Below are positions 2,209 to 62,812 of a DNA stretch of 64,000 nucleotides, piece by piece. Source of the stretch: Brachypterus glaber (Eukaryota > Arthropoda > Insecta > Coleoptera > Kateretidae); assembly GCA_958510825.1 (NCBI GenBank), contig OY294047.1, forward strand, positions 5,456,001 through 5,520,000, written 5' to 3'. The notes beneath the pieces were generated by a model, which saw nothing but the letters and a program-made list of their open reading frames with translations, made no database searches and had not been told where the DNA came from. The translations under genes and the position numbers were made by a program. Position 1 is the first letter of the stretch. The number at the start of each line of letters is the position of its first letter.

Positions 2209-2459
2209 TCAACTCCTGATAATCGAAACTTTTTGCAGCAAAAAATTTTTGACCGTTCTTGGTTTTGGGTCATGGTTATGTTTGTGTTCGTTAACATACA
2301 CCATTCTTCCACTGGTTAATATTTTCGATTTGCATTTGGTTTTAAAGTAAAAAGAACAAATCCAATTGGTTTTAGATTCGGTCTTCTTTTGCATATTATA
2401 ATCAAAATCGTCGACTATTAGTTTTGGATATTTTGTACCCACATCTAAATAAATCGTAT
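2209..2459 (-). CDS. mod(mdg4): FLY-21: last FLYWCH exon in the window, mod(mdg4)-like
   Basis: Acceptor TTTTAG at 2,460-2,461; AT completes Asp: D-T-I-Y-L-D-V-G-T-K-Y-P-K-L-I-V-D-D, 83 residues ending VSIIRS. P12, Y21, W33, C35, C43 and H61-N-H63 are the core; W-R-C is W-I-C. Immediately downstream is a short GC-rich tract (about 2,138-2,182) and then the 325-bp tandem array. Further exons may lie left of position 1. Confidence 0.88.
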
Positions 2460-3187
2460 CTAAAAAGAATTAAAAAATTAAAAATAAATTTTAATTCAGT
2501 TTATTGCCAATCTAAATCAACATATCAAAAGTACGAAACAAGTGAATTTTACAAAAAATAAAAATTTCGGATTGCTCAAAAGTTAATAGTCTATTCTCTA
2601 TAAACTAACGACTTGAAGTTAGCAGTAAACACCATTTTTTGCGAGTCAACCATTTCGAATTTAGTGCTAGAGGCGTGCTTGTGTTGAGATGATGTGGTTG
2701 TGATGGCCAATTTGGTGAGTAATTCTGTTGTAATTTATTGATAATTGTTTTGATCAATTTTTTGATAAACTAAAAACGCCAGTATTTCATTTCAATCAAA
2801 GATTTTCTTTGTTTTTCAAGAAATTCATCAGTCCCTTGTCGTCAGTCCCTTGGTCGTAAAAGTAACAAGAGAGTGATACGCTGATACCAAAAATATAGGC
2901 ATTAATATTTTTAAAATAAAATTATCAAAGAAAAATATTTTTTTACCGCGTGACTAAAAAAATCATATAAGTGTCGGTTCCTTTTAAATACGTTATAACC
3001 TACCCGTTTTCCATTAAAAATGTTATGAAAGAACAGAATTAAAATTAAAAACTATGTGACTCAAATTCATCTGCTAAGTTACCCGACTTTCGTAGAAGTA
3101 CCCATACATATTACTGTGCTTAATAATCATAGTGTTCGTCAGAAGAAAAATTCCATATAGTCGTAAATTTTAATTTATTAATTAATA

Positions 3188-3441
3188 TTATTTCCTTATA
3201 ATTGTAACGAATTGGGATAGTAAATTTTCGTATCCCTTATTTTTAACAAGTGATTCATGCTCGTGATATCCATTGACCTGGACAATTCTTCCACTTGTGA
3301 TTATTCTGCATTTGCACTTGGTCCTATAATACTGAGCACATCTCCATACCGTTTTGTTAATTAACTTGGAATGTATAACGAAGTCGTAATCATCAACTAT
3401 CAATTTCGGATGTTTTTTTCCCATATCGAAATATATTATAT
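3188..3441 (-). CDS. mod(mdg4): FLY-20: alternative terminal FLYWCH exon, mod(mdg4)-like
   Basis: Acceptor TTTTAG at 3,442-3,443; AT completes Asp: D-I-I-Y-F-D-M-G-K-K-H-P-K-L-I-V-D-D, 84 residues. P12, F21, W33, C35, C43, C45 and H60-E-H62 are present; the Asn between the histidines is Glu, but both zinc ligands remain. It pairs with FLY-21 by PKLIVDD and the same spacing. A minus-strand AATAAA (TTTATT at 3,173-3,178) lies about 10 bases after the stop. A large perfect inverted repeat starts 25 bases upstream in the intron. Confidence 0.9.
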
Positions 3442-3529
3442 CTAAAAGTTCAATAATAATAAGTTAAGAATTGACAGTCTATAAAAATATATACTGCACG
3501 TTTGTCGGTTAATAACCGAAAAATATATA

Positions 3530-4318
3530 TAAGAAAGTTATCTATCTGTCGTTAAAATCAAATGGACAGGAAACAGTGAATAGTACCATTTCATCCTTTT
3601 TGGGAATCATCAGCACTGTGTATCCTGTATGTTGCTAATATTCAAATAAAACGTTAGATAGATATAAAAGCATGGTTCCATCTATTGATGTGGTCACTGT
3701 TATCTGTTCACTTGTTCCCAAAAGGCAAATCGCCACAATTTAGGGTGTACAGTAACGTGCATTCAAAATGCCACGGACCTAAACCATTATATGAACCTTT
3801 AGCCGGTTAAGAAGAGTTAAATAAGTTAAGAATTGACAGTCTATAAAAATATATACTGCACGTTTGTCGGTTAATAACCGAAAAATATATATAAGAAAGT
3901 TATCTATCTGTCGTTAAAATCAAATGGACAGGAAACAGTGAATAGTACCATTTCATCCTTTTTGGGAATCATCAGCACCGACAAACGTGCAGTATATATT
4001 TTTATAGACTGTCAATTCTTAACTTATTTAACTCTTCTTAACCGGCTAAAGGTTCATATAATGGTTTAGGTCCGTGGCATTTTGAATGCACGTTACTGTA
4101 CACCCTAAATTGTGGCGATTTGCCTTTTGGGAACAAGTGAACAGATAACAGTGACCACATCAATAGATGGAACCATGCTTTTATATCTATCTAACGTTTT
4201 ATTTGAATATTAGCAACATACAGGATACACAGTGCTGATGATTCCCAAAAAGGATGAAATGGTACTATTCACTGTTTCCTGTCCATTTGATTTTAACGAC
4301 AGATAGATAACTTTCTTA
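3530..4318. repeat. Large perfect inverted repeat (340-bp arms)
   Basis: Arms 3,530-3,869 and 3,979-4,318 are reverse complements, with no mismatch that I could find. The 109-bp spacer repeats part of arm 1, so 3,466-3,616 and 3,826-3,978 are also direct repeats. A fragment (CGTGCAGTATATATTTTTGTAG) recurs at 14,236-14,283. It lies in the intron upstream of FLY-20. Confidence 0.85.
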
Positions 4319-4447
4319 TCAATAATAATAGTTATTAACCATAATATATTCCGAATATTCATAGAAATACATAAGTAATATTTAAAACCAAAACTTATTT
4401 AGCTTTCAATGAGTAAATATATCACTAGTTAGCAAGTTACATCGGCT

Positions 4448-4613
4448 CTTAGGGAACGTTCAAGTATTATGTAACGCTTCTAGGGGGGGGGGGTCATTTT
4501 GGAGTCATTTTGGAGTGTTACGCCCATGTTAATGGAATAGGAAAATAGCGTTACAGGGGGGGGGCTCCAAAATGATCAAAATTTGCGTTACGTAATACTT
4601 GAACGTTCTCTTA
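4448..4613. mobile_element. MITE A, copy 1
   Basis: Ends are inverted: CTTAGGGAACGTTCAAGTAT...ATACTTGAACGTTCTCTTAG. The middle contains runs of G on both sides of GTCATTTTGG. A second copy is at 44,458-44,704. Non-coding. Confidence 0.75.
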
Positions 4614-6604: not shown

Positions 6605-6885
6605 TTAAATTCTCTCGAAGTATCGAGCCTCACTCGTCCTGTATACTTTAACATATTGCATAGTTTTATAAGTCATTTCGTAATTAGTTCTGTTTTTCGG
6701 ATGATTATGTTCCTTGTTAATATTAACAGAATTGCAGCTTGTTGTTAACCTTGTTCTGCACTTGGTTCTGTAGTATGAAGTGCACCTCCACTGTGATTTG
6801 TCCTTGGATCGACCATTAAGAACAAAATCGTTCCCTTCGAAAACTAGTTTTGGGTTCTTATTTCCAACATCAAAGTATATTATTC
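6605..6885 (-). CDS. mod(mdg4): FLY-19: alternative terminal FLYWCH exon, mod(mdg4)-like
   Basis: Acceptor TTTTAG at 6,886-6,887; G-I-I-Y-F-D-V-G-N-K-N-P-K-L-V-F-E-G, 93 residues to TAA. P12, F16, F21, W33, C35, C43 and H60-N-H62 are conserved. Tail: QYVKVYRTSEARYFERI. The exon lacks a Met near its start, so a Met-based ORF search misses it. Its start is the closest to the array consensus. Confidence 0.88.
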
Positions 6886-12792: not shown

Positions 12793-13079
12793 CTAATCGT
12801 AGGTATTATTCTTTCGATAAACGTAGACATATTCCTTAATCACATTTTTTGGATTCAAAACTAATATTTTCGCTTCATGGTTATGCAATTTACTAACATC
12901 AATCTGACAAACATTTGGTTTTGTTGTTATCCTGGCTTTGCATTTTGTTTTGTAGTACTGTGTACATCTCCATTGAAGGTTGGACTTGTCACCTGAATAT
13001 TTTCCATTGAATTCAAACGAATGTCCCTCGAATATAAGTTTAGGATATTTGGTTTTTCCATGTTCATAATAAATAACAT
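12793..13079 (-). CDS. mod(mdg4): FLY-18: alternative terminal FLYWCH exon, mod(mdg4)-like
   Basis: Acceptor TTTTAG at 13,080-13,081; AT completes an Asp: D-V-I-Y-Y-E-H-G-K-T-K-Y-P-K, 95 residues. P13, F17, F22, W37, C39, C47 and H66-N-H68 form the core, with a long loop before W (NGKYSGDKSNLQ). The frame is open upstream of the acceptor to 13,191, but the acceptor and the sibling alignment fix the exon start. An old inverted-repeat element ends some 20 bases past the stop. Confidence 0.9.
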
Positions 13080-14306: not shown

Positions 14307-14575
14307 TTATGTAAAGGTATCTTGATTTATACGAAAAACCCTTACAAAATCCTTGGCTTCATATTTATTGTATGATGTTCCAACATGATTGTGCAGTTTA
14401 CTGACAATAATTTTACTTTCAGCCATTTTTGTTGTTACCCTGCATCGGCATTGGGTTTTGTAATAACATACGCATCTCCAAATGGTTCTTATGTTGTTCA
14501 TGTTATTCACTTCAAAAGTATGCTGTTCGAATATTAATTTAGGCCTCTTTCCTCTTTGATCGTAATAAACTATTC
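14307..14575 (-). CDS. mod(mdg4): FLY-17: alternative terminal FLYWCH exon, mod(mdg4)-like
   Basis: Acceptor TTTTAG at 14,576-14,577; G-I-V-Y-Y-D-Q-R-G-K-R-P-K, 89 residues. P12, F16, F21, W33, C35, C43, C45 and H62-N-H64 are in register. It shares VSKLHNH and a two-residue insertion before the His pair with FLY-18, so these two are duplicates. The tail is DFVRVFRINQDTFT. A fragment of the 3.5-4.3 kb fold-back element lies just downstream (14,236-14,283). Confidence 0.9.
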
Positions 14576-15357
14576 CTAAAAATACACCCGAATAAAATTA
14601 TATTACATTTTTTTTTCTTGGACAAAAAATAGGAATTGGCAAAAACAAGATCTAGTTCTAAAGAACACGCATTTTGTTAACTAACATTTATTACCATAAT
14701 AATGGTTTTCTATTTGTATTTCATGAAGATCAGACTGAAAACACTATGGAACTAAACTATAAATCCTCTGGTTTCCACCTGTTGTCCCCTAAACGTTTGT
14801 CGTCTTAATAGATATAAAGATTTCCTGTCCAGTTTTTATTGACAAATTATATGCATTGATAAACTTAATTAAGTTTGTAAGACTTTTTCCGCTGATTTTA
14901 AATTTTGCATAAAGCGTTATTATATCTTAAACTTTCTTATGGTGGCAAAGGAAACAAGGGAGACTACCAAGTTTGGCCTGTAAATAGGGAGTGTGGGAGA
15001 AAGTGCACGAATGACAATAACAAACTGAATGTATTAAGGAGGCAAGGACTAAAGAAAAAAAGAAAAATATAAACTCAGATAATGTAAAAAAAAAGTTCTG
15101 CTAATTTTTCCAAAATCATATGATTTATAACACTATATTTTTTATGCATAAAATAAATATCTATACTACGGAATTTCAAAAAAATACGTATTTCTGAACG
15201 TTTTATGCCCCCCCATGTGTAACTAGTCTATAATACTATGCAGATAAGATATAGCTCTAAATCGATCTGTAGCTGCTACAGTTTAGTGATAGTTTTGCTC
15301 ATCATCACATAACTATAACAAATGTGACAAAAGTCAAAATTTTCTTAATTTTATAAA
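14576..15357. other. Intron of FLYWCH locus and upstream region of MYCBPAP-like gene
   Basis: AT-rich; no element is recognisable. It must contain the promoter of the plus-strand gene if that gene is expressed, but no clear TATA or Inr can be singled out. Confidence 0.35.
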
Positions 15358-18300: not shown

Positions 18301-18513
18301 CTAAGTCAAAAATCTTTAGCGCAACAAACTTCTTTTGATTATATTGATTTAGAAGAGGATTTAAAAATAGATAAAACAAAGAGTAGAGAATCAAAAACTA
18401 TGTTTGCTGAAGAAAAATCATCAGATATATTCTATTACTTAAATGATAGTATTGGTGATTTGGATAACGTGGAATATTCTAGTACAGAATCTAATAAAAG
18501 CCAACATATTTAA
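15358..18513 (+). CDS. MYCBPAP: MYCBP-associated protein-like, intronless, antisense to the array
   Basis: One uninterrupted 1,051-codon frame. Residues 45-60 (WRSQREKINF) and a Cys cluster at 114-128 precede a beta-rich ASH/MSP-like domain (about 250-385: ITFKNLGNATLRFGF, then VIPGQKIELPIWF and YSGQYSEIWEITT), the arrangement of MYCBPAP, a family linked to the axonemal central apparatus and sperm flagella. Lys/Ser/Asp-rich low-complexity tracts occupy 531-581 and 722-765; a Glu run is at about 973. MYCBPAP of vertebrates has similar length (about 950). The start ATG follows a stop-rich AT leader; AATAAA is at 18,572. Intronless structure inside a minus-strand host locus suggests a retrogene or an intron-lost gene. 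Codon use is AT-rich like the surroundings. Family call is from remembered motifs. Confidence 0.75.
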   Translation: MSDAQDINEYGDCSKDQYIDNKNTQISKLVCPEEHADKLLNAEKWRSQREKINFTMGLCLNRKPGELLMNYADDIRKVTEEKELLEYAKMNRNFDKYRGNPAFFKVPPGLVHKCKCNCICYKKLDPCYLVTPNKPFYNEIPSINFIGKVDFDNLSQTERSIYKTWKKNKYRAKMLEKMKSKIRDIQPHIPNASSIFIIGKGVTMFDKDNLAISNDLRKKSQEDILNNINKVVEVSNTNLNKFSSPPRLCFMINNILVSEEYKNIGRKKVYVIFDYEIGTVKSIVQPITFKNLGNATLRFGFSKYEKFKLFKDYQEVIRKKDPSFFFDKNELVVIPGQKIELPIWFTTKYSGQYSEIWEITTLPKMWDDEFRLYLYLQGSAYNGNFHQRSLEIKSKLEEKAKYKVIKDILLDITNSLSYKESPVDKTTFYEQQIFEFSNNEENLFKTPSKYIYNKSLVEELSNFYLTVRQEKHPLKWNYNINFLKMITRERDLMVYVENESKKVITARENRNELEAKLKEEERIRLAADSEMKGGKEKSKKGEKPHKKDKKGDKKSKGSKKSDKSSDKGKKGKKSKPDAEKPIFLETLYDLEDTYYNKLKLILEKLERPSVIENKHRIKYLHCFFVMTSCFEKMCQDLYDLDKTFNIYENKVYPNTAINLKETSFPERLIYETFDETLVERTKIIPTESKPLIKCTPKPENLKDIPADDAEIIYKTYFNISPEKSSPKGKKGKGKQGNKKEKKVKEKNKETKSKKNDSKLKKANANSDKVKDFDPFEEIVFPTIQASKESVEEETKSLISTSVASKFDMQDSDTYNTYQKNLYIIIYLHLKEAVNALVDTLESCKEKTVTGNIFQDILGSKLDKGCIFSPRVSILKKSSNLSLLEVLEPVFTSKDTQAENYLEEKDIGKSEDREYYEFLLRQHWKKNQKTKQYLIKGMTKQLKSDPKVPPGVWSFMKVNEIPRTPSEIQSSLHEEEEEENSELSQKSLAQQTSFDYIDLEEDLKIDKTKSRESKTMFAEEKSSDIFYYLNDSIGDLDNVEYSSTESNKSQHI

Positions 18514-22902: not shown

Positions 22903-23195
22903 TTATCCCACTGATGTGTATGATTTTTCATCAAATCCAAATATTTTATATACCACTTCTTTTTTCTTCGCTGCACCTTTATACCGTTTAAAATCCGTTG
23001 GACTATGATTGTGCTTTTTTCCAATATAAACATATCCTTCAGTTGTTTTTACTCTTGCTTTACATTTGGTGTGCTTTCTTTGATTACAATACCAGATGCG
23101 GCCGTCTTTTCCTTTATACTTGGTGTCTAAAGTATAGTTATTACCCTCAAATAGGAGTCTTTCATTTTTGTTGCTCAAAACATAATATAGGTTAG
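22903..23195 (-). CDS. mod(mdg4): FLY-16: divergent terminal FLYWCH exon, mod(mdg4)-like
   Basis: Acceptor TTTTAG at 23,196-23,197; CT completes an Ala, the only one in the array: A-N-L-Y-Y-V-L-S-N-K-N. It encodes 97 residues. F16, Y21, W35, C37, C45 and H62-N-H64 remain, but the P-K is E-R, W-R-C is W-Y-C and the inter-Cys segment (NQRKHTK) differs from the common Y-Y-K-T-K. The tail is acidic-aromatic (FGFDEKSYTSVG) rather than basic. It stands apart from the other exons, about 4 kb from its nearest FLYWCH neighbour upstream and 8 kb from the next downstream. Confidence 0.87.
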
Positions 23196-27382: not shown

Positions 27383-27657
27383 TTATTTAGGCAGAAGTTT
27401 ACGAATGTTATCTGAGTAAATTATGTTAACGTAATGGCTCTTCAATGCCTTGTTATCCACACACATAAAAGTGTGGTTATGTGGTTTCCCAACGATAACA
27501 TTTTGGCCACTTGTTGTTATTCTTGCTTTACATTTTGTCTTGTAGTACATGGTGCATCGCCATTGAGTTTTTATCAGATCTTTCTTGCATACTGCAAACT
27601 CGTTGTTTTGGAATACCAATTTTGGGTTCTTCTTTGCCACTTCAAAGTAGATTATTC
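27383..27657 (-). CDS. mod(mdg4): FLY-15: alternative terminal FLYWCH exon, mod(mdg4)-like
   Basis: Acceptor TTTTAG at 27,658-27,659; G-I-I-Y-F-E-V-A-K-K-N-P-K-L-V-F, 91 residues. P12, F16, F21, W33, C35, C43 and H60-N-H62 are conserved and spaced as in FLY-13 and FLY-14, its nearest relatives. The tail is longer than usual (about 29 residues after H-N-H) and ends DNIRKLLPK. Confidence 0.9.
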
Positions 27658-31375: not shown

Positions 31376-31641
31376 TTAAGTGTGCAGACTATTACTATAT
31401 ATTACATTAACAATTTGTGAAAATAATTTATTTTTGCTCTTTATAGGTCTGTAAGGATGATTGTGTTGGTTGCAAACCAGGATATCTTTACCACTCGTAA
31501 TTAGTCTAGCCCTGCATTTTGTCCTAAAATAAGACGTACATCTCCATTTTACTTTTCTTTCGTCCTTATTGTAAACAACGAAATCATGACTTCTGTATAT
31601 TATTTTTGGATTTTTGTTTGCCACGTCATAATATACAACAC
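31376..31641 (-). CDS. mod(mdg4): FLY-14: alternative terminal FLYWCH exon, mod(mdg4)-like
   Basis: Acceptor TTTTAG at 31,642-31,643; GT completes Gly: G-V-V-Y-Y-D-V-A-N-K-N-P-K, 88 residues. P12, F21, W33, C35, C43 and H60-N-H62 form the core. Downstream, from 30.9 to 28.5 kb, several decayed partial copies of this exon's 3' half are found (relic group R3), and a palindromic element (30,893-31,334) separates the live exon from them. Confidence 0.9.
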
Positions 31642-33612: not shown

Positions 33613-33863
33613 TTATTCTTGTCGTATAACATTAACTATTTGGTTCCTTAAATTTCTTAAATGAAAACTCCTATTGTGATGATTATGTTGTTTATAAACG
33701 TGGATATTTCCTCCAGTTGTGACGATTCTTGACAAACATTTTGTTCTGTAATAGGACGTGCACCTCCATTTTGTACTGTTAACCTCTCGGGAATAAATTG
33801 CGTAATCGTTATTTTCAAAGATTATTTTTGGGTTTTTCTTTGCTACTTCGAAATATATTATGC
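33613..33863 (-). CDS. mod(mdg4): FLY-13: alternative terminal FLYWCH exon, mod(mdg4)-like
   Basis: Two tandem AGs occur (TTTTAGTAAAAG); the second, at 33,864-33,865, gives the family phase and the start G-I-I-Y-F-E-V-A-K-K-N-P-K. It encodes 83 residues with P12, F16, Y21, W33, C35, C43 and H60-N-H62. Use of the first AG would add TAAAAG, which puts a non-family start in the same frame. Very similar at its start to FLY-15 (EVAKKNP). Tail QIVNVIRQE. Confidence 0.88.
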
Positions 33864-33865
33864 CT

Positions 33866-34667
33866 TTTACTAAAAACATTTTATAGTTATTTCTTTTAAT
33901 CAAATTATAAAAACGCAAAACATAAAATACATAAAAACCAACAGATTCCGATAACATTTTGTTAATGCATTTTATTTCTCTAAAAAAAAGTCCACATTGG
34001 TACCTGGACTGTCACAAAGTAGCATTTCTTTGCACTCTTCTGCTTTCCAAATGTAAATTTTTTAAAATGGAAAAAAAATATTTTGAAAATTAGCAAAAAA
34101 AAAACAGTATAATAGTTATTTATGGTACTAGTGTGTAAAGTAAGATATTGCCCATGAGAAAATTAACCTGCAAGGAGTCAGCCAAGCAGGTTAATTTTCG
34201 AGAGGGCAATATCGGTTTACCCATGAGTGCCATACAAGGTTTTATCCAATAAATAGCTTAGAAATTCATATTTTTATTAAAATTTTTAACGACAGTTACA
34301 AGAAAATAATTTGACAAGTGACAGTTGAGTGGGTAAAATAAATAATTATCCACTCAATAAAGTAAAAGCCACGCGGGGGTTATTATTGAGTTTATCTATT
34401 TAAAATAAAGCTGGTAATTGTCTGATTATCTGTATGTATTGGATAAAATGTTTTATACTGTTCAGTAATGAGTTGTAGCCTATGCCTATGACTTGCAGGG
34501 TGAACCTAAAAAAAAAATCAGGAATTTTGAAAAAGGAATAGGAATACTTTTTTTTTTGTTTTTCTCTATGAATCTGTAATATAATTAATAACAAATAAAT
34601 AATTAAATAAAGAGCAAGAGAGCTTATGCTACTTAAAACATTTTGTTGGCGACAGAAATTCACACAA
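33866..34667. repeat. Intron with dispersed repeat fragments
   Basis: 34,145-34,230 (CCCATGAGAAAATTAACCTG...GAGGGCAATATC) matches 42,968-43,032; 34,248-34,450 matches 500-640 and 20,690-20,780. Confidence 0.5.
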
Positions 34668-36971: not shown

Positions 36972-37074
36972 TTTTAGTAAAAAAAATATAAAAATTAAAA
37001 CCTTAATAAAAAGTTTAAAAAGAAATAAAAAAATATAGGTTTCATTAAGCATCTTTATATGTACAATAACTGGT

Positions 37075-37450: not shown

Positions 37451-37707
37451 TTATTCTCTTCGAAATACATTAACAATATGATTTTCTAATAAAACATGCC
37501 CTGTAGTTTTGTTGGCATGGTTATGGAACTTGTGCAAATAAATACAGTTTCCATTTACTGGAACAATTATTCTTGCTAGACACTTGGACCTAAAATACGA
37601 CGAACATCTCCATTTATTTTTCTTCGGGTGTCTATAATATAGCGTAAAATCATTATGTCGAAATATTAGTTTGGGATTTTTTCGGCCTACATCATACGAT
37701 AGTATAT
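37451..37707 (-). CDS. mod(mdg4): FLY-12: alternative terminal FLYWCH exon, mod(mdg4)-like
   Basis: Acceptor TTTCAG at 37,708-37,709; AT completes an Asp and the exon reads D-I-L-S-Y-D-V-G-R-K-N-P-K, 85 residues ending in VNVFRRE. P12, F16, F21, W33, C35, C43 and H62-N-H64 are the core. The loop between second Cys and His is longer and contains an extra Cys (NGNCIYLHKF). There is no Met near the start. A truncated non-LTR retrotransposon ends in a CAAT repeat 40 bases downstream. Confidence 0.87.
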
Positions 37708-38992: not shown

Positions 38993-39261
38993 CTAATAAA
39001 TAGATCTAAAAATATTTACAATAGCTTTTGTAGGTGTTAATTTTTCCAAATTTAATTTTCTCATTATATGATTATGATGTCCATAAATAAAAGCTTGACC
39101 AGTAGCCGTGGTAATTCTGCATGGGCATTTATGTTTATTATATTGCGCACATCTCCAACGCGTTTGAGAGTTAATATTATTTTTTCGTAGAAAATAATCG
39201 TAGCCTTCAAATACTAGTTTGGGATTTACATTCTTTTGGGAAGCACAAAAATAGAGAACTC
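38993..39261 (-). CDS. mod(mdg4): FLY-11: alternative terminal FLYWCH exon, mod(mdg4)-like
   Basis: Acceptor TTTTAG at 39,262-39,263; reads G-V-L-Y-F-C-A-S-Q-K-N-V-N-P-K and runs 89 residues to TAG. P14, F18, Y23, W36, C38, C46, C48 and H63-N-H65 are in place. It has no Met near the start and is not found by Met-initiated ORF searches. An AATAAA signal on the minus strand lies only 3 bases after the stop (38,984-38,989), and an inverted-repeat element (38,256-38,972) begins just beyond it, so the 3' UTR is either very short or transposon-derived. Confidence 0.88.
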
Positions 39262-40804: not shown

Positions 40805-41073
40805 TTAAAGCTTAAAAGCTCTTGAAATGTTAACAATAGTTTGGGATGTCTTTATATATTGTAAATCACGTGGCCTTGAATGATTATGCAACCCATAAAT
40901 CACAGCATTTGCTCCTGCTGTGGTGGCAATTCTGCATGGACATCTACATTTCCAATACATAGAACATTTCCAATCGGTTTTTTTCAAACCTTTTTCTTTT
41001 AATCGAAAATCAAAACCATCATATACTAGTTTTGGATTTACGTTCTTTTTTGAAGCACAGAAGTAAAAGATTC
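40805..41073 (-). CDS. mod(mdg4): FLY-10: alternative terminal FLYWCH exon, mod(mdg4)-like
   Basis: Acceptor TTTCAG at 41,074-41,075; starts G-I-F-Y-F-C-A-S-K-K-N-V-N-P-K, 89 residues. P14, F23, W35, C37, C45, C47 and H63-N-H65 are present, with one extra Cys at 43 (WKCRCPC). The start is nearly identical to FLY-11 (CAS-x-KNVNPKLV), so the two are a duplicate pair. The tail ends IVNISRAFKL. The Met in mid-exon is not an initiator. Confidence 0.9.
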
Positions 41074-42652: not shown

Positions 42653-42909
42653 CTATTTACATCTTGTCAAATTAACTACAACTTTTGTAGACTTTGAATA
42701 ATTTAATTTAATTTGTCTTTGGTGATTATGTTCTCCATATATCGCAGCGTTTCCTCCAGAAGTAGTGACAATCCTGCTGCCACATTTGTTTTTGTAGTAC
42801 ATACAACATTTCCAAGTTGTCCGATCGGATGATCTGTCTTTGAAAAAAAAGTCGTGGCCCTCAAATACAAGTTTTGGTCTGTTACGTCCAGGGCAAAAGT
42901 AAAATATTC
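42653..42909 (-). CDS. mod(mdg4): FLY-9: alternative terminal FLYWCH exon, mod(mdg4)-like
   Basis: Acceptor TTTTAG at 42,910-42,911; starts G-I-F-Y-F-C-P-G-R-N-R-P-K, 85 residues. P12, F16, F21, W33, C35, C43 and H61-N-H63 are the core; the accessory Cys two residues after the second ligand is Ser. The SGGNAAIYGEHNH segment matches FLY-7 and FLY-10, placing it in the same subgroup. The tail is VVVNLTRCK. The naive ORF extends into the intron as far as 42,973. Confidence 0.9.
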
Positions 42910-44063: not shown

Positions 44064-44321
44064 CATAGAAAAAACGGACTCCTTGAACCAAGGACACGTG
44101 TCTTTGGATATGTTCAAAGCCATATTTTCTTGTTTCAAGGCTGGCATTTTATTGAACCAAAGTCAAGTCCTTGAATAAAGAGCGCGGATTTTTATTCCAA
44201 AACCCGTGCTCTTCATTCAAGGACATTGACTTTGGTTCAAGAAAATGGCAGCCTTGAAACAAGAGAATATGGCTTTGAACTGTATATGTGTCCTTAGTTC
44301 AAGGAATCCGTTTTTTCTATG
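44064..44321. mobile_element. Palindromic MITE with TTCAAGG motifs
   Basis: CATAGAAAAAACGGACTCCTTGAAC pairs with GTTCAAGGAATCCGTTTTTTCTATG; the interior (CATATTTTCTTGTTTCAAGGC etc.) continues the palindrome over nearly the full 258 bp. Confidence 0.8.
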
Positions 44322-44329
44322 TAATTACA

Positions 44330-44457
44330 AGCATCGTAATTACAGGTTTCGTGGACAACTGCAGATTTTCCGTCAGTTGTAACAATTCTGCACTTGCATT
44401 TCTTTTTTTGAAAATTCCTTGCATTTTCCTTTCATTCAAAAATCAAAAATTTTCGCC
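44330..44457 (-). pseudogene. Relic FLYWCH exon R2 (paralogue of FLY-8)
   Basis: The minus strand contains KCKCRIVTTDGKSAVVHET, matching the KCKCGIVTIEGKSAIINET stretch of FLY-8, but the following H-N-H has become C-N-Y and the W-K-C region is frameshifted and poorly preserved. The 5' part of the exon is lost where a MITE-like element with TTAGGGAACGTTCAAG ends begins (44,458). This is a dead duplicate, cut by the insertion. Confidence 0.7.
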
Positions 44458-44854: not shown

Positions 44855-45111
44855 TTACATTTTTATTCTTTTAACTTTTACCACAGTTTTTTTGGATTTT
44901 GGATGCATTAAAAATTTGGGCTCGTGATTATGAGTTTCGTTGATAATCGCCGATTTTCCTTCAATTGTAACAATGCCGCATTTGCATTTTTTTGAAAATT
45001 CCATGCATTTCCATTTTATCCAGTGGTTCGAAAGCTTCGCCTCAATTACAAACGCATGTCCCTCAAATATCATTTTCATGTGGGGACTTTTCCCAAAAAA
45101 ATATAAGGTCC
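44855..45111 (-). CDS. mod(mdg4): FLY-8: divergent terminal FLYWCH exon, mod(mdg4)-like
   Basis: Acceptor TTTTAG at 45,112-45,113; GG completes Gly, then T-L-Y-F-F-G-K-S-P. It encodes 85 residues. W34, C36, C43, C45 and H61-N-H63 are present, but the C36-C43 spacing is one residue shorter than in the siblings (MEFSKK instead of x-x-Y-Y-K-T-K) and the P-K is replaced by H-M-K-M. The tail is strongly basic (KSKKTVVKVKRIKM). Relic R2 at 44.3 kb is a decayed paralogue of this exon. Confidence 0.87.
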
Positions 45112-46979: not shown

Positions 46980-47239
46980 CTATGATTGTCTTTTAATATT
47001 AACAACCGTTCTTCTACATGTCGAATAATCCAAATTTCTTGGAGCATGATTATGTCTCCCAAAGATAATAGCATTCCCTCCACTGGTGGTAAAAATCTTG
47101 CAATGACATTTAAACTTATGGTATTGAGCGCATCTCCATTTGGTTTGATCAGAGAACCTTTCATGCACTTGAAAATCGTACTTTTCAAAAACTATTTTTG
47201 GGTTTACCAGTTGTCGAGATGGTAGAAAGTAAAGTGTTC
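46980..47239 (-). CDS. mod(mdg4): FLY-7: alternative terminal FLYWCH exon, mod(mdg4)-like
   Basis: Acceptor TTTTAG at 47,240-47,241; starts G-T-L-Y-F-L-P-S, 86 residues. P14, F18, F23, W35, C37, C45, C47 and H63-N-H65 are conserved; the tail is short and basic (VVNIKRQS). The stop TAG at 46,980-46,982 lies only about 3 bases from the end of transposon TE-B (46,252-46,977), so TE-B must supply the 3' UTR or be transcribed through. The intron upstream is open in frame, which makes the naive ORF longer (to 47,378). Confidence 0.9.
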
Positions 47240-48934: not shown

Positions 48935-49338
48935 TTATGTATCTGTAGTCGGCATATATGTACTCGAGACATTTATAGTCGGCATGTTTGTAGTCGGCAT
49001 ATTTGTAGTTGGGATATTTGTAGTCGACATATTTGTATTATTATATATATTTGTATACGACTTAGAATCATCTACTTTTTTTATGTTCATAATAACTCGT
49101 GCAGCGCTAGAATATTTTAAGCATTTATAATTTATATGGTTATGATTTCCATAAATAGTTGCGTTAAATCCAGGATTGGTGACGATGCGACATTTGCATT
49201 TGTGTCTATTATAAACTCCACATCGCCAAGATTTCTTTCCATCATTGTGTTGAATTTTGTCTTTCAGAAAAAAATCGAATCCCTCAAATATTAGTTTTGG
49301 ATGTATATTTTTTTGCGTCTTACATATAAAAAATATTC
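48935..49338 (-). CDS. mod(mdg4): FLY-6: FLYWCH exon with a repeat-derived C-terminal tail
   Basis: Acceptor TTTTAG at 49,339-49,340; begins G-I-F-F-I-C-K-T-Q-K-N-I-H-P-K. P14, F18, W38, C40, C48, C50 and H66-N-H68 form the finger; the W is preceded by a longer loop (KDKIQHNDGKKS). Unlike all other exons the frame runs on past the usual end (V-x-x-I-K-K) for about 45 residues to give 134 in total. Residues 96-134 are imperfect Thr-Asn-Met-Pro-Thr units encoded by a 15-bp minisatellite at 48,942-49,055. The tail is seen directly; whether it is functional is unknown. The exon has no Met near its start and is easily missed by ORF callers. Confidence 0.85.
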
Positions 49339-52929: not shown

Positions 52930-53195
52930 CTACCATATTCTTGTAATCTTCACAAAGGTTTTATTACCAGTCAGATATTTCAGATTGGTTGGTGCTAAAT
53001 GATTATGATTTCCGTAAACTAAGGCATTTGATCCAGCCAAAGTAACCAAACGACAGCTACATTTTGTCCTAAAGTAACTAGTACATCTCCATGTTGTTTT
53101 TTCAGCTGAATTTCTAGCTTTTACTTGGAAATCGTAGTTTTCAAACACTAATTTTGGGTTAATATTTTTGTTAGTTGTTGTGAAATAAAGTATAC
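52930..53195 (-). CDS. mod(mdg4): FLY-5: alternative terminal FLYWCH exon, mod(mdg4)-like
   Basis: Acceptor TTTTAG at 53,196-53,197; GT completes Gly and the exon reads G-I-L-Y-F-T-T-T-N-K-N-I-N-P-K, 88 residues. P14, F18, F23, W36, C38, C46, C48 and H64-N-H66 are in place. The tail ends KTFVKITRIW. It belongs with FLY-4, FLY-6, FLY-10 and FLY-11 by the K-N-(I/V)-(N/H)-P-K linker. A 740-bp inverted-repeat element ends about 110 bases downstream of the stop (52,078-52,816). Confidence 0.9.
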
Positions 53196-54167: not shown

Positions 54168-54893
54168 ATGAGAGCGGTCCAAAAGTCACCCCCCCCCCCT
54201 CTTAATTTTTTAACCAGTTGAGATATCGACTTCAAATTTGGAACTTTTAAATAAGACAACTTAAACTATTTTTTAGCATATATTTAATACTTTCAGCTCT
54301 TAAAATGTGGGCAGGGGGGCATGGGGGCACATTTTTTTAAATGGAAAGGGGGGACGTGTAATACATCATTTTAAAGCTTATAAAATTCTCCATTTAACTC
54401 CATATTTTTAAATTAAAAAAAAATGGGTTTAAAATGGGGTTGAAAATGGGTATTAATTTCAAAATTCCTCTAAAAAAAAAACAAATAATTTTTTAAAAAT
54501 GCCTAATTTCATCATAAAAAAATGTTAATTATACTTTTAAACTAATTTTAGTTGACATAAATAAAAATTTATAAAAAAAAAACTTAAAAAATCGAATGTT
54601 TTAGCACAAAAAATTGAAAAATCAAAACCTTAAAAAACATTTTTAAAAAAATTTAAAATGTTAGTTTAAATAGGGAATTTTATAAGCTTTAAAATATTGT
54701 ATCACAGGACCGCCCTTTCCATTTTAAAAAATGTCCCCCCATGCCCCCCTGCCCACATTTTAAGAGTTGAAAATATCAAATATATGCTAAAAGATAGTTT
54801 AAGTTGTCTTATTTAAGAGTTCTAAATTTGAAGTCGATATCTGAACTCGTTCAAAAGTTAAAAGGGGGGGGGGTGACTTTTGGACCGCACTGT
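54168..54893. mobile_element. TE-D, copy 2
   Basis: GAGCGGTCCAAAAGTCACCCCC at the left, GGGGGTGACTTTTGGACCGCACTGTA at the right; arms of about 300 bp contain ATATCGACTTCAAATTTG and TGTGGGCAGGGGGGCATGGG. Confidence 0.85.
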
Positions 54894-54894
54894 A

Positions 54895-55055
54895 TATTTA
54901 TCTATATTTGAGTGGCTGGGAATGATATAAATTACTGCAAATATCTTTCGATAGGTTACGATTCGACAATGACATTTAGAGACGAAAAATACACATCTCC
55001 AATTATCTTTTTCTCTATTAAGTTTTTCCGACAGCTGAAAATTATTTCCTTCAAA
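54895..55055 (-). pseudogene. Relic FLYWCH exon R1, truncated by a repeat
   Basis: On the minus strand the segment reads FEGNNFQLS...DNWRC...SKCHCRIVT, a recognisable FLYWCH first half with W, C and C in register. The H-N-H is degraded (IPSHSN) and there is no normal tail. The exon start (G-x-x-Y-F...P-K-L) is missing: the sequence switches at about 55,055 into the repeat that also occurs at 40.2-40.75 kb, and on the other side a long-inverted-repeat element ends at about 54,893. Insertions on both sides explain the loss. Confidence 0.7.
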
Positions 55056-55530
55056 TAGGTACTTTGGTACGGTTACAAAGGGCGCAACTCGTTTTCACCA
55101 CCCATTGTAACCGCAACAAAATAAATATGAAAATTCATAAAATATAAAACTTATAGAGAATTTCAAGAGCTACAAGTTTGCTCATAACCACTTTTAACCT
55201 CCGATGTTTAATTTGGCTGAAAACTCGAAAAAAAAAAATTTTAGCCACATGGCCATATTTGAATATTTATAACTCGATTGTCATTAATATAATAAAAAAA
55301 TGATCCAAACAAGACTTGTTCGAATTTATTTCCTTAACAAAATTGGTCATACACAGTTTTATCGTAAGATGGATATTTAGCGAGATTACCGCTCTCATCC
55401 CTAAAATTATAGATAGCGGACATTCCTTAGGCAAATCACCGGGAAAAACTAACAGGAGTGTATTGTTACTATCCACTACTACCCTTTAAAATATCAGCCC
55501 GTGTACATTTATTGCAATTTAACATAGGAA
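55056..55530. repeat. Repeat P, copy 2
   Basis: Starts AGGTACTTTGGTACGGTTACA and runs in parallel with 40,190-40,750. It truncates relic exon R1. Confidence 0.6.
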
Positions 55531-56119: not shown

Positions 56120-56391
56120 CTAGACAGTATATTTTTTATTTCGTCTTTCAACAGAAACCAAAAGTCTCTTTGAGTTCTGAAAGTTTTTGAATAAATTACA
56201 ATGATTATGCGTCCCTCGAACAGATGCAGTTTGGCCTCTAGTAGTTATTTGGCAGCCACACTTCGTCTTATGATATTGCGTACAGCGCCAAGCTGTATAC
56301 TTGCCATTTATTTCTTTCACGCGGAAATCATTGTCTTCAAAAATGATTTTTGGATGGATATTCCTGGTAGTTGTGGTGAAGTATATAATTC
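56120..56391 (-). CDS. mod(mdg4): FLY-4: alternative terminal FLYWCH exon, mod(mdg4)-like
   Basis: Acceptor TTTAG at 56,392-56,393; starts G-I-I-Y-F-T-T-T-T-R-N-I-H-P-K, 90 residues. P14, F23, W35, C37, C45 and H62-N-H64 form the core. The start is one residue longer than FLY-1 to FLY-3 and carries a Thr run shared with FLY-5. The stop lies about 13 bases from the end of a tandemly duplicated, transposon-like 201-bp segment (55,762-56,106), so the 3' UTR of this isoform is probably repeat-derived. A Met at the middle of the exon is not a start. Confidence 0.9.
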
Positions 56392-56393
56392 CT

Positions 56394-57109: not shown

Positions 57110-57760
57110 TTATGACGAGTTGTGGTTATTCACCCGTGACGAGGTTTTTCCTATCAAAGACTTCCATATTGCAGGTAAGTGGTAACCAGTGTCCCGATTG
57201 ATATTGTTAGGATGCTTGATGATTTCTATCGATTCCCGTATCTTCCTTGGCATTTTTCTGTTTTCTGTTAATATTTGTTTTGTTTCAGACAAATTGATTT
57301 TATGACCTGTTTCATGTACATGTTCGGCTACTGCCGATAAGGAAATTTGTTTCTTTCTTATATTGCGCTCATGCTCTTGAAGTCTTGTAGAAATTTTTCT
57401 CTTAGTTTCACCTATGTAAACCGTACCACAGGAGCAGGGTATTTTATATACGCCTTCTGAACTCAGGGGTATTTTTTCTTTTGTTGAAGTCAAACATTGA
57501 CCTAATTTTTGGTTGGACCGAAATATAGGCTTAATATTTGACTTCTTCAAAAGTTTACCTATTTTATCCGTGATACCGCTTACATAGGGAAGTATAACTT
57601 GTGTCTGTCTGTCATTGTCACTATTGTCCTGTTGTTTGGGTCTGGAATTTCTGTATTTGTATATGGTCTTATTAATGTCTTTTTTGGTATAACCGTTCAT
57701 GGTCAAGGCTTTGGTTAGTTTAAGGAGTTCTGTGTCTAGGGAATTCTTGTCTGAAATCAT
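57110..57760 (-). CDS. Penelope-like element GIY-YIG endonuclease fragment
   Basis: 216 residues from the C-terminal part of a Penelope-like retroelement polyprotein. YKIPCSCGTVYIGETKRKIS is the GIY-YIG-type endonuclease signature with its CxC; SAVAEHVHETGH follows as in Penelope/Poseidon-type elements, and TGYHLPAIWKSLI is near the end. The reverse transcriptase is missing, so the copy is 5'-truncated. It lies inside the element 56,978-57,826. The first Met is not a native start. Confidence 0.85.
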   Translation of the reverse strand: MISDKNSLDTELLKLTKALTMNGYTKKDINKTIYKYRNSRPKQQDNSDNDRQTQVILPYVSGITDKIGKLLKKSNIKPIFRSNQKLGQCLTSTKEKIPLSSEGVYKIPCSCGTVYIGETKRKISTRLQEHERNIRKKQISLSAVAEHVHETGHKINLSETKQILTENRKMPRKIRESIEIIKHPNNINRDTGYHLPAIWKSLIGKTSSRVNNHNSS

Positions 57761-57996
57761 GAAAGCCCTAAACCCGAAAGTGAAAGTTCTTTATATCTTA
57801 ATGGCCGTGAAAGCTTAAAATCTAAATATAGGTTTATTATTAATAGTTATAGTGATGATAAGAGTTACTTTCATGATTTGTTATCTTTAATAGTAATTTT
57901 GTATTTTTGTCCCATTCAATAATACCGTTTTCTTAAATGGGACGTAAAGTTACGTTTTTTTTTAATGCTTGTAGTTTTGGTAAAAATAAATAATAA

Positions 57997-59594: not shown

Positions 59595-59875
59595 TTATAT
59601 GTTATATACATTTATTACATTCTTCAATCTCCGACATACGTTAACCGTTTGGCTTTTTAAATCATCAATATCCAGGCGAGTGGGCGTGTGATTATGGAAC
59701 CCCCTTACTGTGATGTTGGAACCACTTGAAGTAATATGACAACGGCATTTTCTTTAATGATATGACGTGCAACGCCAAGAAGTCGTGCTTTTCGACTTAC
59801 TGTTTATAGAATACATGTTATTTTCGAAAATCATCTTTGGTAGTTTTTTTGCTGTTACATCGAAATAGATAACAC
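59595..59875 (-). pseudogene. mod(mdg4): FLY-3: FLYWCH exon with one in-frame stop
   Basis: Acceptor TATAG is at 59,876-59,877 and the exon opens G-V-I-Y-F-D-V. It aligns without gaps to FLY-1 and FLY-2 (P13, F17, W34, C36, C44, H61-N-H63) and runs to a natural stop at 59,595. Residue 41, where siblings have Lys (AAA), is TAA at 59,754-59,756. Nothing else is broken, so the change is recent, polymorphic or a base error. If real, the isoform stops after the first Cys and has no finger. The exon sits between two copies of the same long-inverted-repeat element (58,798-59,528 and 60,264-60,968). Confidence 0.85.
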
Positions 59876-60263: not shown

Positions 60264-60968
60264 CAGAGCGGTCCAAAAGTCACCCCCCCTCTTAACTTTT
60301 GAACCAGTTGAGTTATCGACTTCAAATTTGTAACTTTTAAATAAGACAACTTAAACTATCTTTTAGCATATATTTAATACTTTCAGCTCTTAAAATGTGG
60401 GCAGGGGGGCATGGGGGACATTTTTTTAAATGAAAAGGGGGGTAGTGTAATACATCATTTTAAAGCTTATAAAATTCTCCATTTAACTCCATATTTTTAA
60501 ATTAAAAAAAAAATTGGGTTTAAAATGGGGTTGAAAATGGGTATTAATGTCAAAATTCCTCTAAAAAAACAAATAATTTTTTTAAAAATGCCTAATTTAT
60601 TCATAAAAAAATGTTAATTATACTTTTAAACTAATTTTAGTTGACATAAATAAAAATTTATAAAAAAAACTTAAAAAATCGAATGTTTTAGCACAAAAAA
60701 AATTGAAAAATCAAAACCTTAAAAAACATTTTTAAAAAATTTAAAAATGTTAGTTTAAATAGAGAATTTTATAAGCTTTAAAATGATGTATCCCTTTCCA
60801 TTTAAAAAATGTCCCCCCATGCCCCCCTGCCCACATTTTAAGAGCTGAAAATATCAAATATATGCTAAAAGATAGTTTAACTTGTCATATTTAAGAGTTC
60901 TAAATTTGAAGTCGATATCTCAACTCGTTCAAAAGTTAAAAGGGGGGGTGACTTTTGGACCGCACTGT
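60264..60968. mobile_element. TE-D, copy 4
   Basis: CAGAGCGGTCCAAAAGTCACC to GGTGACTTTTGGACCGCACTGTA. Flanks FLY-3 on its upstream side. Very close to the 54-kb copy. Confidence 0.85.
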
Positions 60969-61187
60969 ATATTTTTACCTAAAAGTAAAGTATCTGTTAA
61001 CTTTACCGATGGGATTAATGCCAAGTGAATGCTCTATTACTAAAACAAGTTTATTTCATACTAGAAAAATATACATGTTACAGGAACACATTTTATAAAT
61101 ACAACACACCAAATAACTAAATTAAATCATTAATTAAAATATCAGTTAAGACCTTTATAAAGCTGGCTAGATTATTTTTTCTTCATA

Positions 61188-61450
61188 TTAAACAGGATGA
61201 TTTTTTCTGTATACATTAACTATTTGAAAAATGGAACTATCGTAATTTTCTAAACTATCTGGGTGATTATGATACCCTTTTACAGTTACAGTCCTTCCAG
61301 AAGAAACTATGCTACATTTGCATCTAGTTTTATAATAAGATACACATCTCCAAATTGTTTTGTTTTTCCAGTTTCCATTTACAGCAAAATTATTATTTTC
61401 AAATATAAGCTTCGGATGGTTTTTAGCCGTTGATTCAAAGTATATAGTTC
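61188..61450 (-). CDS. mod(mdg4): FLY-2: alternative terminal FLYWCH exon, mod(mdg4)-like
   Basis: Acceptor TATAG at 61,451-61,452, start G-T-I-Y-F-E, 87 residues. Core residues are P13, F22, W34, C36, C44 and H61-N-H63, exactly the spacing of FLY-1; the sequence between the ligands (YYKTRCKC) is nearly identical to FLY-1, so the two look like a tandem duplicate pair. The tail ends in VYRKNHPV. The intron upstream stays open in the same frame for some 100 bases, so a plain ORF call over-extends to 61,553; the acceptor and the aligned family start show where the exon begins. Confidence 0.9.
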
Positions 61451-61452
61451 CT

Positions 61453-62534
61453 ATAAATAGAGAGTATGTTAGATTAGTTATTTTCCTACGTTCCTCTTTG
61501 AAAATGACATTTAGCACACTCTCTTGTTCTTTAGAAAACGCCTCATATCGCACTAGTTTGATATTTTTACATCACACTCGTGTGATATTTATGTATGGAG
61601 GTTTGCCTAATTTTATTTAGATATTTACCTCGTAGATTCTACGAATTTTATTCATCTTGTTTTATAAACCATTTTCCACCTTTAACCACAGCCTTTTTTG
61701 ATATATTTTATGTTTTTTAATCCAAATATTTCTGTTTTTCATGTCAAAAATAGAAACTGTAGTTATAACGTTACTATTTTGACCACTACTGTCCAGTCTA
61801 GACAGTCTAGATCTTATAAAAATTACTTATTTTTTTATTTAGTTTCCTTATATTACATAAAAAACATCAAAATACACAGTATTTTTCTTATGAAATGTAA
61901 AGCGGTACAATTTTACTATCTTATATGGCAGCATAACCACAGAAATCTAATTTAATAAGCAAACTCAATTTTGCATTTATTTAGGAATAGGCAACCCATT
62001 AAAAAGCTATGTATTGTATTAAATATAAAACCAAGAAAACTAAAGCTAAAAGGAAATTATATTTCCTCTTTGACATACATACATATATAAATTTGAATAC
62101 TATTTATAATTTTTTGTGCTTTGTTTTTCTGAAAAATTAATAAAAATTAGAAAATTTTAAAATAAGAAACTTCATATTTTTTCGGGATCGTAGGAAAAAT
62201 AGTGTACATAACTCGTTGGAAAGTGTATTTCATACACTCGTGGGGTTTCCTCACTCGCCTGGCGGCTCGTTCGTAATCCTTCCCACCCGCGTGAAATATG
62301 TCACTTTCCACACTAGTTATGTAATATACTATTACATTGCCTATAAAATGGCGGTTTCGGTTTCACTTCCGGTTTCTTTAGTCTAGTTGAAAAAGAAGCC
62401 GGTATATGTCCAATTGGACATTAGATTTGAATTAAGCGCCTCAAAATGCATAAGAATGAATAGGTCCCTACCCCAGGACAATACACTTTTTTCATTTTGT
62501 GTTGTTTAATGCCTGAGTTATAAGTTTCCACTTT
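61453..62534. other. Intron, no gene seen
   Basis: 62,185-62,335 is a GC-richer dyad (GGCGGCTCGTTCGTAATCC) like the right end of TE-B. 62,440-62,500 carries a fragment like element L (CATAAGAATGAATAGGTCCC). Confidence 0.45.
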
Positions 62535-62812
62535 CTAAAGATAAAAAATTGGCTTGCGCTTATTTTTTCTAAATACTTTAACCACTTGATTAGTCTCATT
62601 TTCGTAATTTTTAAAAATTTCGGAGTGATTATGAAATCCTTTTATAGTTACAGTGTCCCCAGTGGTGGCCAGATCACATTTACATCTGGTTTTGTAATAG
62701 GAACAACATCTCCATATCGTTCCATTCCTCCTTTTTTGATTAACAACAAAATCGTTGTCTTCAAAAATTAGCTTTGGATTATTTTTGGTTGTTGTTTCAA
62801 AATAAATAATTC
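62535..62812 (-). CDS. mod(mdg4): FLY-1: alternative terminal FLYWCH exon, mod(mdg4)-like
   Basis: First FLYWCH exon in transcription order. The acceptor (TATAG) is at 62,813-62,814; the exon adds GA to an upstream phase-1 base, giving Gly-Ile-Ile-Tyr-Phe. It encodes 92 residues: P13-K14, F22, W34, C36, C44 and H61-N-H63 are the FLYWCH core and zinc ligands, followed by a basic tail (RKNKRKP). In mod(mdg4) such exons give each BTB-protein isoform its own C-terminal protein- or chromatin-binding module. Closest relative in the window is FLY-2 (same spacing, GFHNH/GYHNH, similar tail). The initiator Met lies in upstream exons outside the window. The FLYWCH call is certain; the locus name rests on architecture. 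Confidence 0.9.

What the first reader, a model, noticed from the sequence alone, without database searches (positions are those of the whole stretch)
2209..62812. Phase-locked array of 21 FLYWCH terminal exons on one strand
Seen: 21 minus-strand exons spread over 60 kb, each preceded by an AG acceptor, each 2 modulo 3 in length, each reading into the same G-x-(I/L)-Y-(F/Y)...PKL...W-x-C...C...H-x-H frame and ending in its own stop. Known: mod(mdg4) of flies and moths makes isoforms this way. Inferred: this is the 3' half of that locus in another insect, with the BTB exons right of 64,000. Twelve of the junctions complete Gly with GA, and all are compatible with one shared upstream G.
Basis: partly seen in the sequence, partly recalled or inferred. 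Interest (0 to 1): 0.9.

Follow-up and report, generated by a model that had tools for sequence, protein, structure and literature searches.

The report
Giant array of alternative gene endings
One insect gene appears able to end its protein in at least 140 different ways, each with its own zinc-binding FLYWCH domain, by choosing one of 140 interchangeable last exons spread over 636,000 bases.

Summary
The window has 20 intact FLYWCH terminal exons plus one with a premature stop, all minus-strand. Each has an AG acceptor at the same aligned position and a length of 2 mod 3. The window is C10:5,456,001-5,520,000 of its genome; the array runs from 5,022,840 to 5,658,409. I checked acceptor and phase of 140 exons (101 read across the domain, 39 at the junction only): 140 of 140 are minus-strand and phase 1. 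The predicted donor lies upstream on the same strand: a BTB exon and two further exons read 261 aa, and the latter two end in phase 1 with one G. Drosophila Mod(mdg4) shows the same phase: 119 of 119 isoforms have V/A/D/E/G at the junction. Published loci that I read about have 9-41 tail combinations. A second, small BTB-FLYWCH locus at C10:42.7 Mb leaves one-to-one orthology open. No RNA was available: exon use, and cis versus trans splicing, are inferred.

The parts
62535..62812 (-). FLYWCH terminal exon, intact, junction Gly (GA)
61188..61450 (-). FLYWCH terminal exon, intact, junction Gly (GA)
59595..59875 (-). FLYWCH terminal exon with one in-frame TAA (probable young pseudo-exon or assembly error); acceptor TTATAG and phase kept
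56120..56391 (-). FLYWCH terminal exon, intact, junction Gly (GA)
54858..55094 (-). FLYWCH exon fragment beside a foldback repeat (54190-54433 / 54630-54873)
52930..53195 (-). FLYWCH terminal exon, intact, junction Gly (GT)
48935..49338 (-). FLYWCH terminal exon, intact, junction Gly (GA), with a 46-residue tail
46980..47239 (-). FLYWCH terminal exon, intact, junction Gly (GA)
44855..45111 (-). FLYWCH terminal exon, intact, junction Gly (GG)
44294..44431 (-). 3' fragment of a FLYWCH exon
42653..42909 (-). FLYWCH terminal exon, intact, junction Gly (GA)
40805..41073 (-). FLYWCH terminal exon, intact, junction Gly (GA)
38993..39261 (-). FLYWCH terminal exon, intact, junction Gly (GA)
37451..37707 (-). 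FLYWCH terminal exon, intact, junction Asp (AT)
33613..33869 (-). FLYWCH terminal exon, intact; best acceptor TTTTTAG at 33869 (Val), an alternative AG at 33863 (Gly), same phase
31376..31641 (-). FLYWCH terminal exon, intact, junction Gly (GT)
27383..27657 (-). FLYWCH terminal exon, intact, junction Gly (GA)
22903..23195 (-). FLYWCH terminal exon, intact, lowest profile score of the 20, junction Ala (CT)
14307..14575 (-). FLYWCH terminal exon, intact, junction Gly (GA)
12793..13079 (-). FLYWCH terminal exon, intact, junction Asp (AT)
6605..6885 (-). FLYWCH terminal exon, intact, junction Gly (GA)
3188..3441 (-). FLYWCH terminal exon, intact, junction Asp (AT)
2209..2459 (-). FLYWCH terminal exon, intact, junction Asp (AT)

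Best explanation
This is a tenth of the length of a mod(mdg4)-type 'one head, many tails' gene of an insect, probably a beetle. A common head (BTB exon plus exons B and C, 261 aa, C10:5,754,455 down to 5,749,438) ends in phase 1 with a single G. Any one of at least 140 FLYWCH terminal exons on the same strand, 91 to 727 kb downstream, can be joined to it, because every one starts with an AG acceptor and two bases that complete a G-codon, then encodes one FLYWCH domain and its own stop. Each mRNA would thus give a BTB protein with one of 140 different FLYWCH tails. By analogy with Drosophila, the BTB part multimerises and the tail helps choose the partner. Shown from sequence: exon structure, phase, strand, donor, tandem-duplication history, signs of purifying selection. 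Inferred: that the exons are spliced to this donor, that splicing is probably trans from local promoters (about 60:40 over one giant pre-mRNA), and that the product works in chromatin insulation or repression.
For: Acceptor plus phase 1 in 20 of 20 window exons, 101 of 101 exons read across the domain and 39 of 39 further ones checked at the junction (count confirmed). W/H-x-C..C..H-x-H kept in 101 of 101; Pfam FLYWCH in 48 of 48 scanned. All 121 matches of one array exon in a 648-Mb genome (150 of 202 candidates scored) lie on C10 between 5,022,632 and 5,658,407, all minus. BTB exon upstream on the same strand, 59% identical to fly Mod(mdg4), E 3.6e-38 (Pfam BTB). Exons B and C open, with GT donors, reading 261 aa with the BTB exon and leaving one G. 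Fly Mod(mdg4): 119 of 119 anchored Drosophila isoforms have V, A, D, E or G as first variable residue, that is a codon split G|NN. Twelve fly tails used as tblastn queries hit 19 of the 20 intact window exons and the broken one at E 1e-3 or better. 16 of 20 window exons have no in-frame ATG between the upstream stop and the acceptor. Model of the exon product: FLYWCH fold, best PDB match 2rpr, rmsd 1.6, E 0.0037. Neighbours are closest relatives: 71 of 101 exons have their nearest relative within 3 ranks, 6 expected.
Against: No RNA: not one junction is shown. Exons B and C were picked by eye, and the acceptor of B (CACCTTATAAAG) is not T-rich next to the AG. The part of the head after the BTB matches fly only weakly (a 19-residue acidic stretch, E 0.019). 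A second BTB locus with at least two phase-1 FLYWCH exons (C10:42.74-42.75 Mb) is as close to fly mod(mdg4) as this one (60% against 58%). The FLYWCH profile alone does not single out mod(mdg4): human FLYWCH1 scores within the range of fly tails. Poly(A) and core-promoter signals near the exons show no consistent enrichment.
Confidence: 0.9

Rival explanations
1. Same locus, but ordinary cis alternative splicing: one primary transcript from the BTB promoter runs up to about 730 kb and is cut at one of 140 terminal exons by alternative polyadenylation. (Compatible with the best explanation except for the splicing mode.)
For: All 140 exons share the donor's strand, unlike fly and moth loci where tails lie on both strands (PMC4667647, passages and section 8). 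That paper calls the beetle and bee homologues canonical cis genes.
Against: At a recalled 1-2 kb/min the farthest exon is 6-12 h from the promoter. An antisense intronless 1054-aa ORF of the MYCBPAP family sits inside the array (15349-18513 +). No clear enrichment of poly(A) signals. Mosquito tails also share the donor strand and are thought trans-spliced (PMC4667647 section 8). Fly mod(mdg4) mRNAs are made by trans-splicing only (PMC12692577, introduction).
Confidence: 0.38
2. The locus is not the mod(mdg4) orthologue but a lineage-specific duplicate of it (the orthologue being C10:42.7 Mb) whose tail array exploded. (Compatible with the best explanation, which claims the type and not the orthology.)
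For: The two BTBs are 67.5% identical to each other and 58-60% to fly. The 42.7 Mb locus has two known FLYWCH exons with phase-1 acceptors and slightly the better BTB score (142.1 against 138.8 bits). A 2014 survey gives Tribolium one BTB-FLYWCH gene (PMC4033408, table seen in passages).
Against: The eight best matches of each 42.7 Mb tail are array exons, not fly tails. No tree with other insects could be built.
Confidence: 0.45
3. A cluster of independent FLYWCH genes or of transposon-borne FLYWCH copies.
For: FLYWCH domains do occur in transposons; this genome has a separate dispersed FLYWCH family, 87-96% identical in protein among the five copies examined, on four chromosomes. 4 of 20 window exons do have an ATG upstream in frame.
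Against: Array exons share only 30% identity on average, keep acceptor and phase in 140 of 140, and share little flanking DNA (1 of 210 pairs upstream, 7 of 210 downstream, window exons). The dispersed copies examined lie elsewhere and match array exons at only 24-37% (three best matches each).
Confidence: 0.03

Closest known systems
mod(mdg4) of Drosophila (also Danaus, Bombyx, Plutella, Anopheles, Aedes)
   Same: TTK-type BTB head, common exons ending in phase 1 with G, many FLYWCH 3' exons (PMC4667647, PMC5666082 passages)
   Different: At least 140 tails against 31, 9, 40, 41, 35 and 34 exon combinations listed for six species (PMC4667647 section 8); all on the donor strand; junction sits at the very start of the domain in most tails (fly tails have a variable spacer); a second small BTB-FLYWCH locus exists
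lola of Drosophila
   Same: BTB head with alternative zinc-finger 3' exons, trans-splicing (PMC11426971 passages)
   Different: C2H2 fingers, 20 isoforms; here FLYWCH
Dscam1 exon clusters and chelicerate sDscam cassettes
   Same: Tandem array of paralogous exons, one chosen; duplicated neighbours alike (PMC5775551 passages)
   Different: Internal or 5' exons of an adhesion receptor; largest clusters in the passages read are 48 (fly exon 6) and a block of 62 (Metaseiulus sDscam-alpha)
FLYWCH1 domain (PDB 2rpr)
   Same: Same fold, rmsd 1.6 over 64 columns; profile match E 5e-6
   Different: Here an N-terminal strand starting at the splice junction and a C-terminal strand complete the exon

Membership tests
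mod(mdg4)-type locus | TTK-type BTB/POZ in the common N-terminal exons | tested here: met
   BTB exon C10:5,754,108-5,754,449 (-), 59% to fly Mod(mdg4), E 3.6e-38; Pfam BTB 94 bits. That the BTB is of the TTK subtype rests on this similarity, not on a separate test
mod(mdg4)-type locus | Common part ends in phase 1 with G | tested here: met
   Exons B and C end G|GTAAGT and G|GTAGGT, leaving one G after 261 codons (genomic sequence only); fly phase from 119 of 119 isoforms
mod(mdg4)-type locus | Many alternative 3' exons, mostly FLYWCH | tested here: met
   140 of 140 acceptor and phase; FLYWCH 48 of 48 scanned
mod(mdg4)-type locus | Tails joined to the head in mRNA | not testable with these tools
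   no transcript data
mod(mdg4)-type locus | Trans-splicing (tails from own promoters, some antisense to donor) | tested here: inconclusive
   No antisense tail found; promoters not detectable by composition or simple motifs; mosquito tails also share the donor strand (PMC4667647 section 8)
mod(mdg4) one-to-one orthologue | Closest BTB-FLYWCH locus of the genome to fly mod(mdg4) | tested here: inconclusive
   C10:42.74 Mb 142.1 bits, this locus 138.8 bits
FLYWCH domain family | W-x-C, C, H-x-H ligands and fold | tested here: met
lola | C2H2 zinc-finger 3' exons | tested here: not met
   Pfam gives only FLYWCH for the 48 exons scanned
FLYWCH-bearing DNA transposon (MULE) | Transposase or shared flanks around copies | tested here: not met
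   No MULE domain in the 13 window proteins scanned; flanks shared in 1 of 210 pairs upstream and 7 of 210 downstream

The most novel reading that the evidence does not exclude
A single BTB gene with at least 140 usable terminal exons at one splice junction, the largest exon choice I know of. It would be a repertoire gene in which a duplicated mod(mdg4)-type locus has become a fast-growing library of FLYWCH tails, fed from one donor over 727 kb by trans-splicing, perhaps to recognise many genomic or transposon targets. A BEN-domain exon (C10:5,661,487-5,661,271) has the right phases to be swapped into the head.
Probability: 0.45. Interest if true: 0.92.

Novelty: new variant of a known kind. 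Interest (0 to 1): 0.78.

Why it matters
The architecture is known, the scale is not: at least 140 tails on one donor, against 9-41 tail combinations in the mod(mdg4) loci I read about and 48-62 in the largest Dscam clusters in the passages read. If the tails are used, one gene makes more BTB-adaptor isoforms than any mod(mdg4) in those papers. All tails share the donor's strand and reach 727 kb from it, so this insect offers a hard test of cis against trans splicing. Recent duplicates next to 13%-identical old copies make the birth, phase constraint and death of tails directly measurable.

Tried and rejected
Independent FLYWCH genes: rejected (16 of 20 window exons lack an in-frame start codon upstream). 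Transposon copies: rejected. Poly(A) signals, GC, CpG, Inr and TATA as marks of separate transcription units: no consistent enrichment; (19 of 20 exons, 18 bins) the clear GC shifts are the T-rich acceptor and the coding part, and single bins of Inr (z 2.3 at -500) and TATA (z 2.7 at +200) stand out without a pattern. BTB inside the window: none (best E 0.12). RNA families and tRNAs: none (the tRNA scan used the bacterial code). Relatives in viral contigs: none for one exon. Protein search with one exon: none; with the exon alignment: one beetle protein, Asbolus verrucosus, 98 aa, E 3e-19, among 299 candidates, the only taxonomic hint; it is about equally close to several window exons, so no one-to-one orthologue. 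The candidate lengths allowed by that search exclude full-length isoforms, and the full-length search listed only Drosophila among its best 120 of 1930 as far as rows carry a name. Tree of window exons with fly tails: few supported forks, long branches, fly row P0022 and the beetle protein fall inside the window set; used for no claim. Viral fold library: best match a baculovirus FLYWCH protein, E 0.03. USP-like ORF as a spliced exon of the same gene: no acceptor at the domain start.

Counts and drops: one search kept 101 of 114 rows. Dropped were second rows for three exons (5176168, 5304984, 5505215), fragments 5500416 and 5511048, the broken exons 5515875 (2 rows) and 5597879 (2 rows), and four divergent FLYWCH ORFs at 5.68-5.73 Mb. 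Three of the 101 (5272291, 5362234, 5539776) run off the fetched stretch, so their stop was not seen. The 39 added were read only over 100 bases at the junction; their open frame rests. 140 is a lower bound: searches score a limited number of candidates, 5.02-5.456 and 5.52-5.56 Mb were not read end to end, and one search found only 30 of the 45 exons of the fully read stretches. Acceptors were chosen by a score of mine that prefers T-rich AGs near the domain start; the other two phases were scored the same way and were lower in 101 of 101 and 39 of 39.

Full report
WHAT WAS CLAIMED AND WHAT IS THERE. A strict motif search finds 20 on the minus strand and none on the plus strand; a profile built from them adds one full exon with a single in-frame TAA (59595-59875) and two fragments. 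In all 20 intact exons an AG stands exactly before the aligned junction codon, and the length to the stop is 2 mod 3. With a donor G the first residue is Gly in 15, Asp in 4, Ala in 1; GA occurs 11 times, not 12. The exon at 33613 has a better acceptor 6 nt upstream in the same phase. Searching only for T-rich AGs followed by a long phase-1 frame recovers all 20 among 25 minus-strand results (the other five lie in transposon-like, USP or unassigned frames), with 9 and 6 in the other phases and 6 on the plus strand.

SELECTION AND HISTORY. Window exons share 19-59% of residues, yet W, C, C, H, H are invariant. In the 7 of 14 closest pairs with a finite dS, dN is below dS; the other 7 are saturated. 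19 of 20 exons stop 1-10 residues after the last predicted strand, so they look like terminal modules. Identity falls with distance along the array (Mantel r -0.28, 4 of 5000 permutations, 21 window exons; r -0.52, 0 of 2000, 101 exons).

THE PRODUCT. AlphaFold on the 20-row alignment gives pLDDT 86.9: a mostly beta fold whose first strand begins at the splice junction and whose last strand ends just before the stop. The best PDB match is a FLYWCH1 domain, 2rpr, rmsd 1.6, TM 0.62, E 0.0037; no match reaches E 0.001, and WRKY domains follow weakly. Pfam FLYWCH is met in all 48 array exons scanned.

THE WHOLE LOCUS. The genome search, after many busy replies, placed the window at C10:5,456,001-5,520,000 of a 648-Mb genome and showed FLYWCH hits on the minus strand of C10 from 5.02 to 5.66 Mb, besides dispersed ones elsewhere (150 of 513 candidates scored). 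I read 5.56-5.76 Mb in full and short stretches at the other C10 array hits. 101 intact exons result: 51 left of the window, 20 in it, 5 in 5.52-5.56 Mb, 25 in 5.56-5.66 Mb. All are minus, all carry the ligands, and in 101 of 101 the phase-1 acceptor is the best-scoring one (TTTTAG in 85). One array exon used as a query finds 121 matches in the whole genome, all inside this interval and all minus; five contain a stop: the window's broken exon and a tandem set of four at 5,345,173-5,346,117. 39 of the 116 unbroken ones were new; 39 of 39 have the acceptor and phase (TTTTAG in 38). The total is at least 140 over 635.6 kb. In the stretches not read end to end, the overlap of the two searches (47 of 56 refound, 39 new) would put the true figure near 147 by simple capture-recapture, my arithmetic.

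THE DONOR. Upstream on the same strand lies a BTB exon (MASEQFSLCWDNF..., hit C10:5,754,108-5,754,449) whose donor is phase 0, then exon B (5,750,820-5,750,526, phase 0 to 1) and exon C (5,749,569-5,749,438, phase 1 to 1). Together they read 261 aa without a stop and leave one G before GT. Exons B and C were found by eye among ORFs with splice sites, and have no transcript support; the acceptor of B is weak. A head ending in phase 1 with G is what the tails require. In Drosophila the common part ends ...GNTEAQ and the next residue is V, A, D, E or G in 119 of 119 anchored isoforms (of 121 fetched proteins; the others are the beetle protein and one isoform with a different end), all from one genus as far as named and so not independent; that is the same split codon. 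The phase match alone would be a 1 in 3 coincidence; position, strand and BTB similarity add to it.

WHICH GENE. The array BTB is 58-59% identical to fly Mod(mdg4). Another BTB on C10 at 42.736 Mb is 59-60%, and one on C4 53-54%. The 42.7 Mb locus has two known FLYWCH exons with phase-1 acceptors. So the genome has two mod(mdg4)-like loci, and I cannot say which is the orthologue. Beyond the BTB the head resembles fly only in a short acidic stretch (E 0.019).

HOW IT WORKS. Inferred from the fly: over 30 isoforms, all by trans-splicing, tails from their own promoters, an intronic terminator that stops read-through (PMC12692577 abstract and introduction; PMC11727487 passages). The FLYWCH tail contributes to recruitment of the one isoform studied and the BTB multimerises (PMC5666082, PMC11426971 passages). 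Here all tails share the donor's strand, as in mosquitoes (PMC4667647 section 8), so strand cannot prove trans-splicing. The 91-727 kb distances and an antisense ORF inside the array make trans-splicing somewhat likelier.

COMPARISON. PMC4667647 (section 8 and passages) lists 31, 9, 40, 41, 35 and 34 tail combinations in six species, 24 acceptor genes over 550 kb in the monarch, and calls the homologues of Tribolium, Apis, Camponotus and Daphnia canonical cis genes. PMC5094011 (passages) finds Mod(mdg4) transcripts across Neoptera. PMC4033408 (passages) counts one BTB-FLYWCH gene in Tribolium. Dscam clusters in PMC5775551 (passages) reach 48 and 62. PMC10027918 was seen in passages on FLYWCH in transposon-derived factors. 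My ten searches of the held library showed no FLYWCH locus of this size in listings or passages. Automatic annotations of other beetles, and papers outside the library, were not examined.

VERDICT.

Noticed in passing
window 15349-18513 +: Intronless 1054-aa ORF of the MYCBPAP family (Pfam E 8e-35) antisense inside the array; retrogene or nested gene
   Followed up: partly
window 35985-37073 -: USP2-like deubiquitinase catalytic domain, open but starting abruptly at NTCFMNS with no acceptor there; looks like a 5'-truncated copy
   Followed up: partly
L082, L094, L095 (C10:42.735-42.755 Mb, +): Second BTB-FLYWCH locus with phase-1 acceptors on two FLYWCH exons
   Followed up: partly
L009 (C10:5,661,487-5,661,271, -): BEN-domain exon (25.7 bits, cut-off 23.2), phase 0 to 1, ending G|GTATGT, 3 kb upstream of the first tail: phases fit insertion between BTB and a tail
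   Followed up: partly
L013 (C10:5,706,557-5,706,292, -): Cysteine-rich terminal exon with TTTTTAG and phase 1 but no FLYWCH: possible non-FLYWCH tail; cysteine-rich ORFs also at 5,704,535 and 5,748,394, but without a clear phase-1 acceptor
   Followed up: partly
L003, L004, L005, L007, L008: Separate dispersed FLYWCH family: five copies on four chromosomes, 87-96% identical in protein with about 540-720 bp of shared DNA, probably a mobile element; many further dispersed hits were not examined
   Followed up: partly
C10:5,345,173-5,346,117 -: Four tandem FLYWCH copies about 240 bp apart, each with one TAG: an amplified dead tail
   Followed up: no
window 57110-57790 -: ORF with a GIY-YIG-like stretch, recalled as Penelope-type; no Pfam match
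   Followed up: no
window 19790-20413 -: Weak RNase H match below the Pfam cut-off, probably a retrotransposon remnant
   Followed up: no
L011, L012 (C10:5,686,431; 5,689,070; 5,693,065, -): Three related ORFs of 326-334 aa between head and tails, mobile-element-like by repetition only
   Followed up: no
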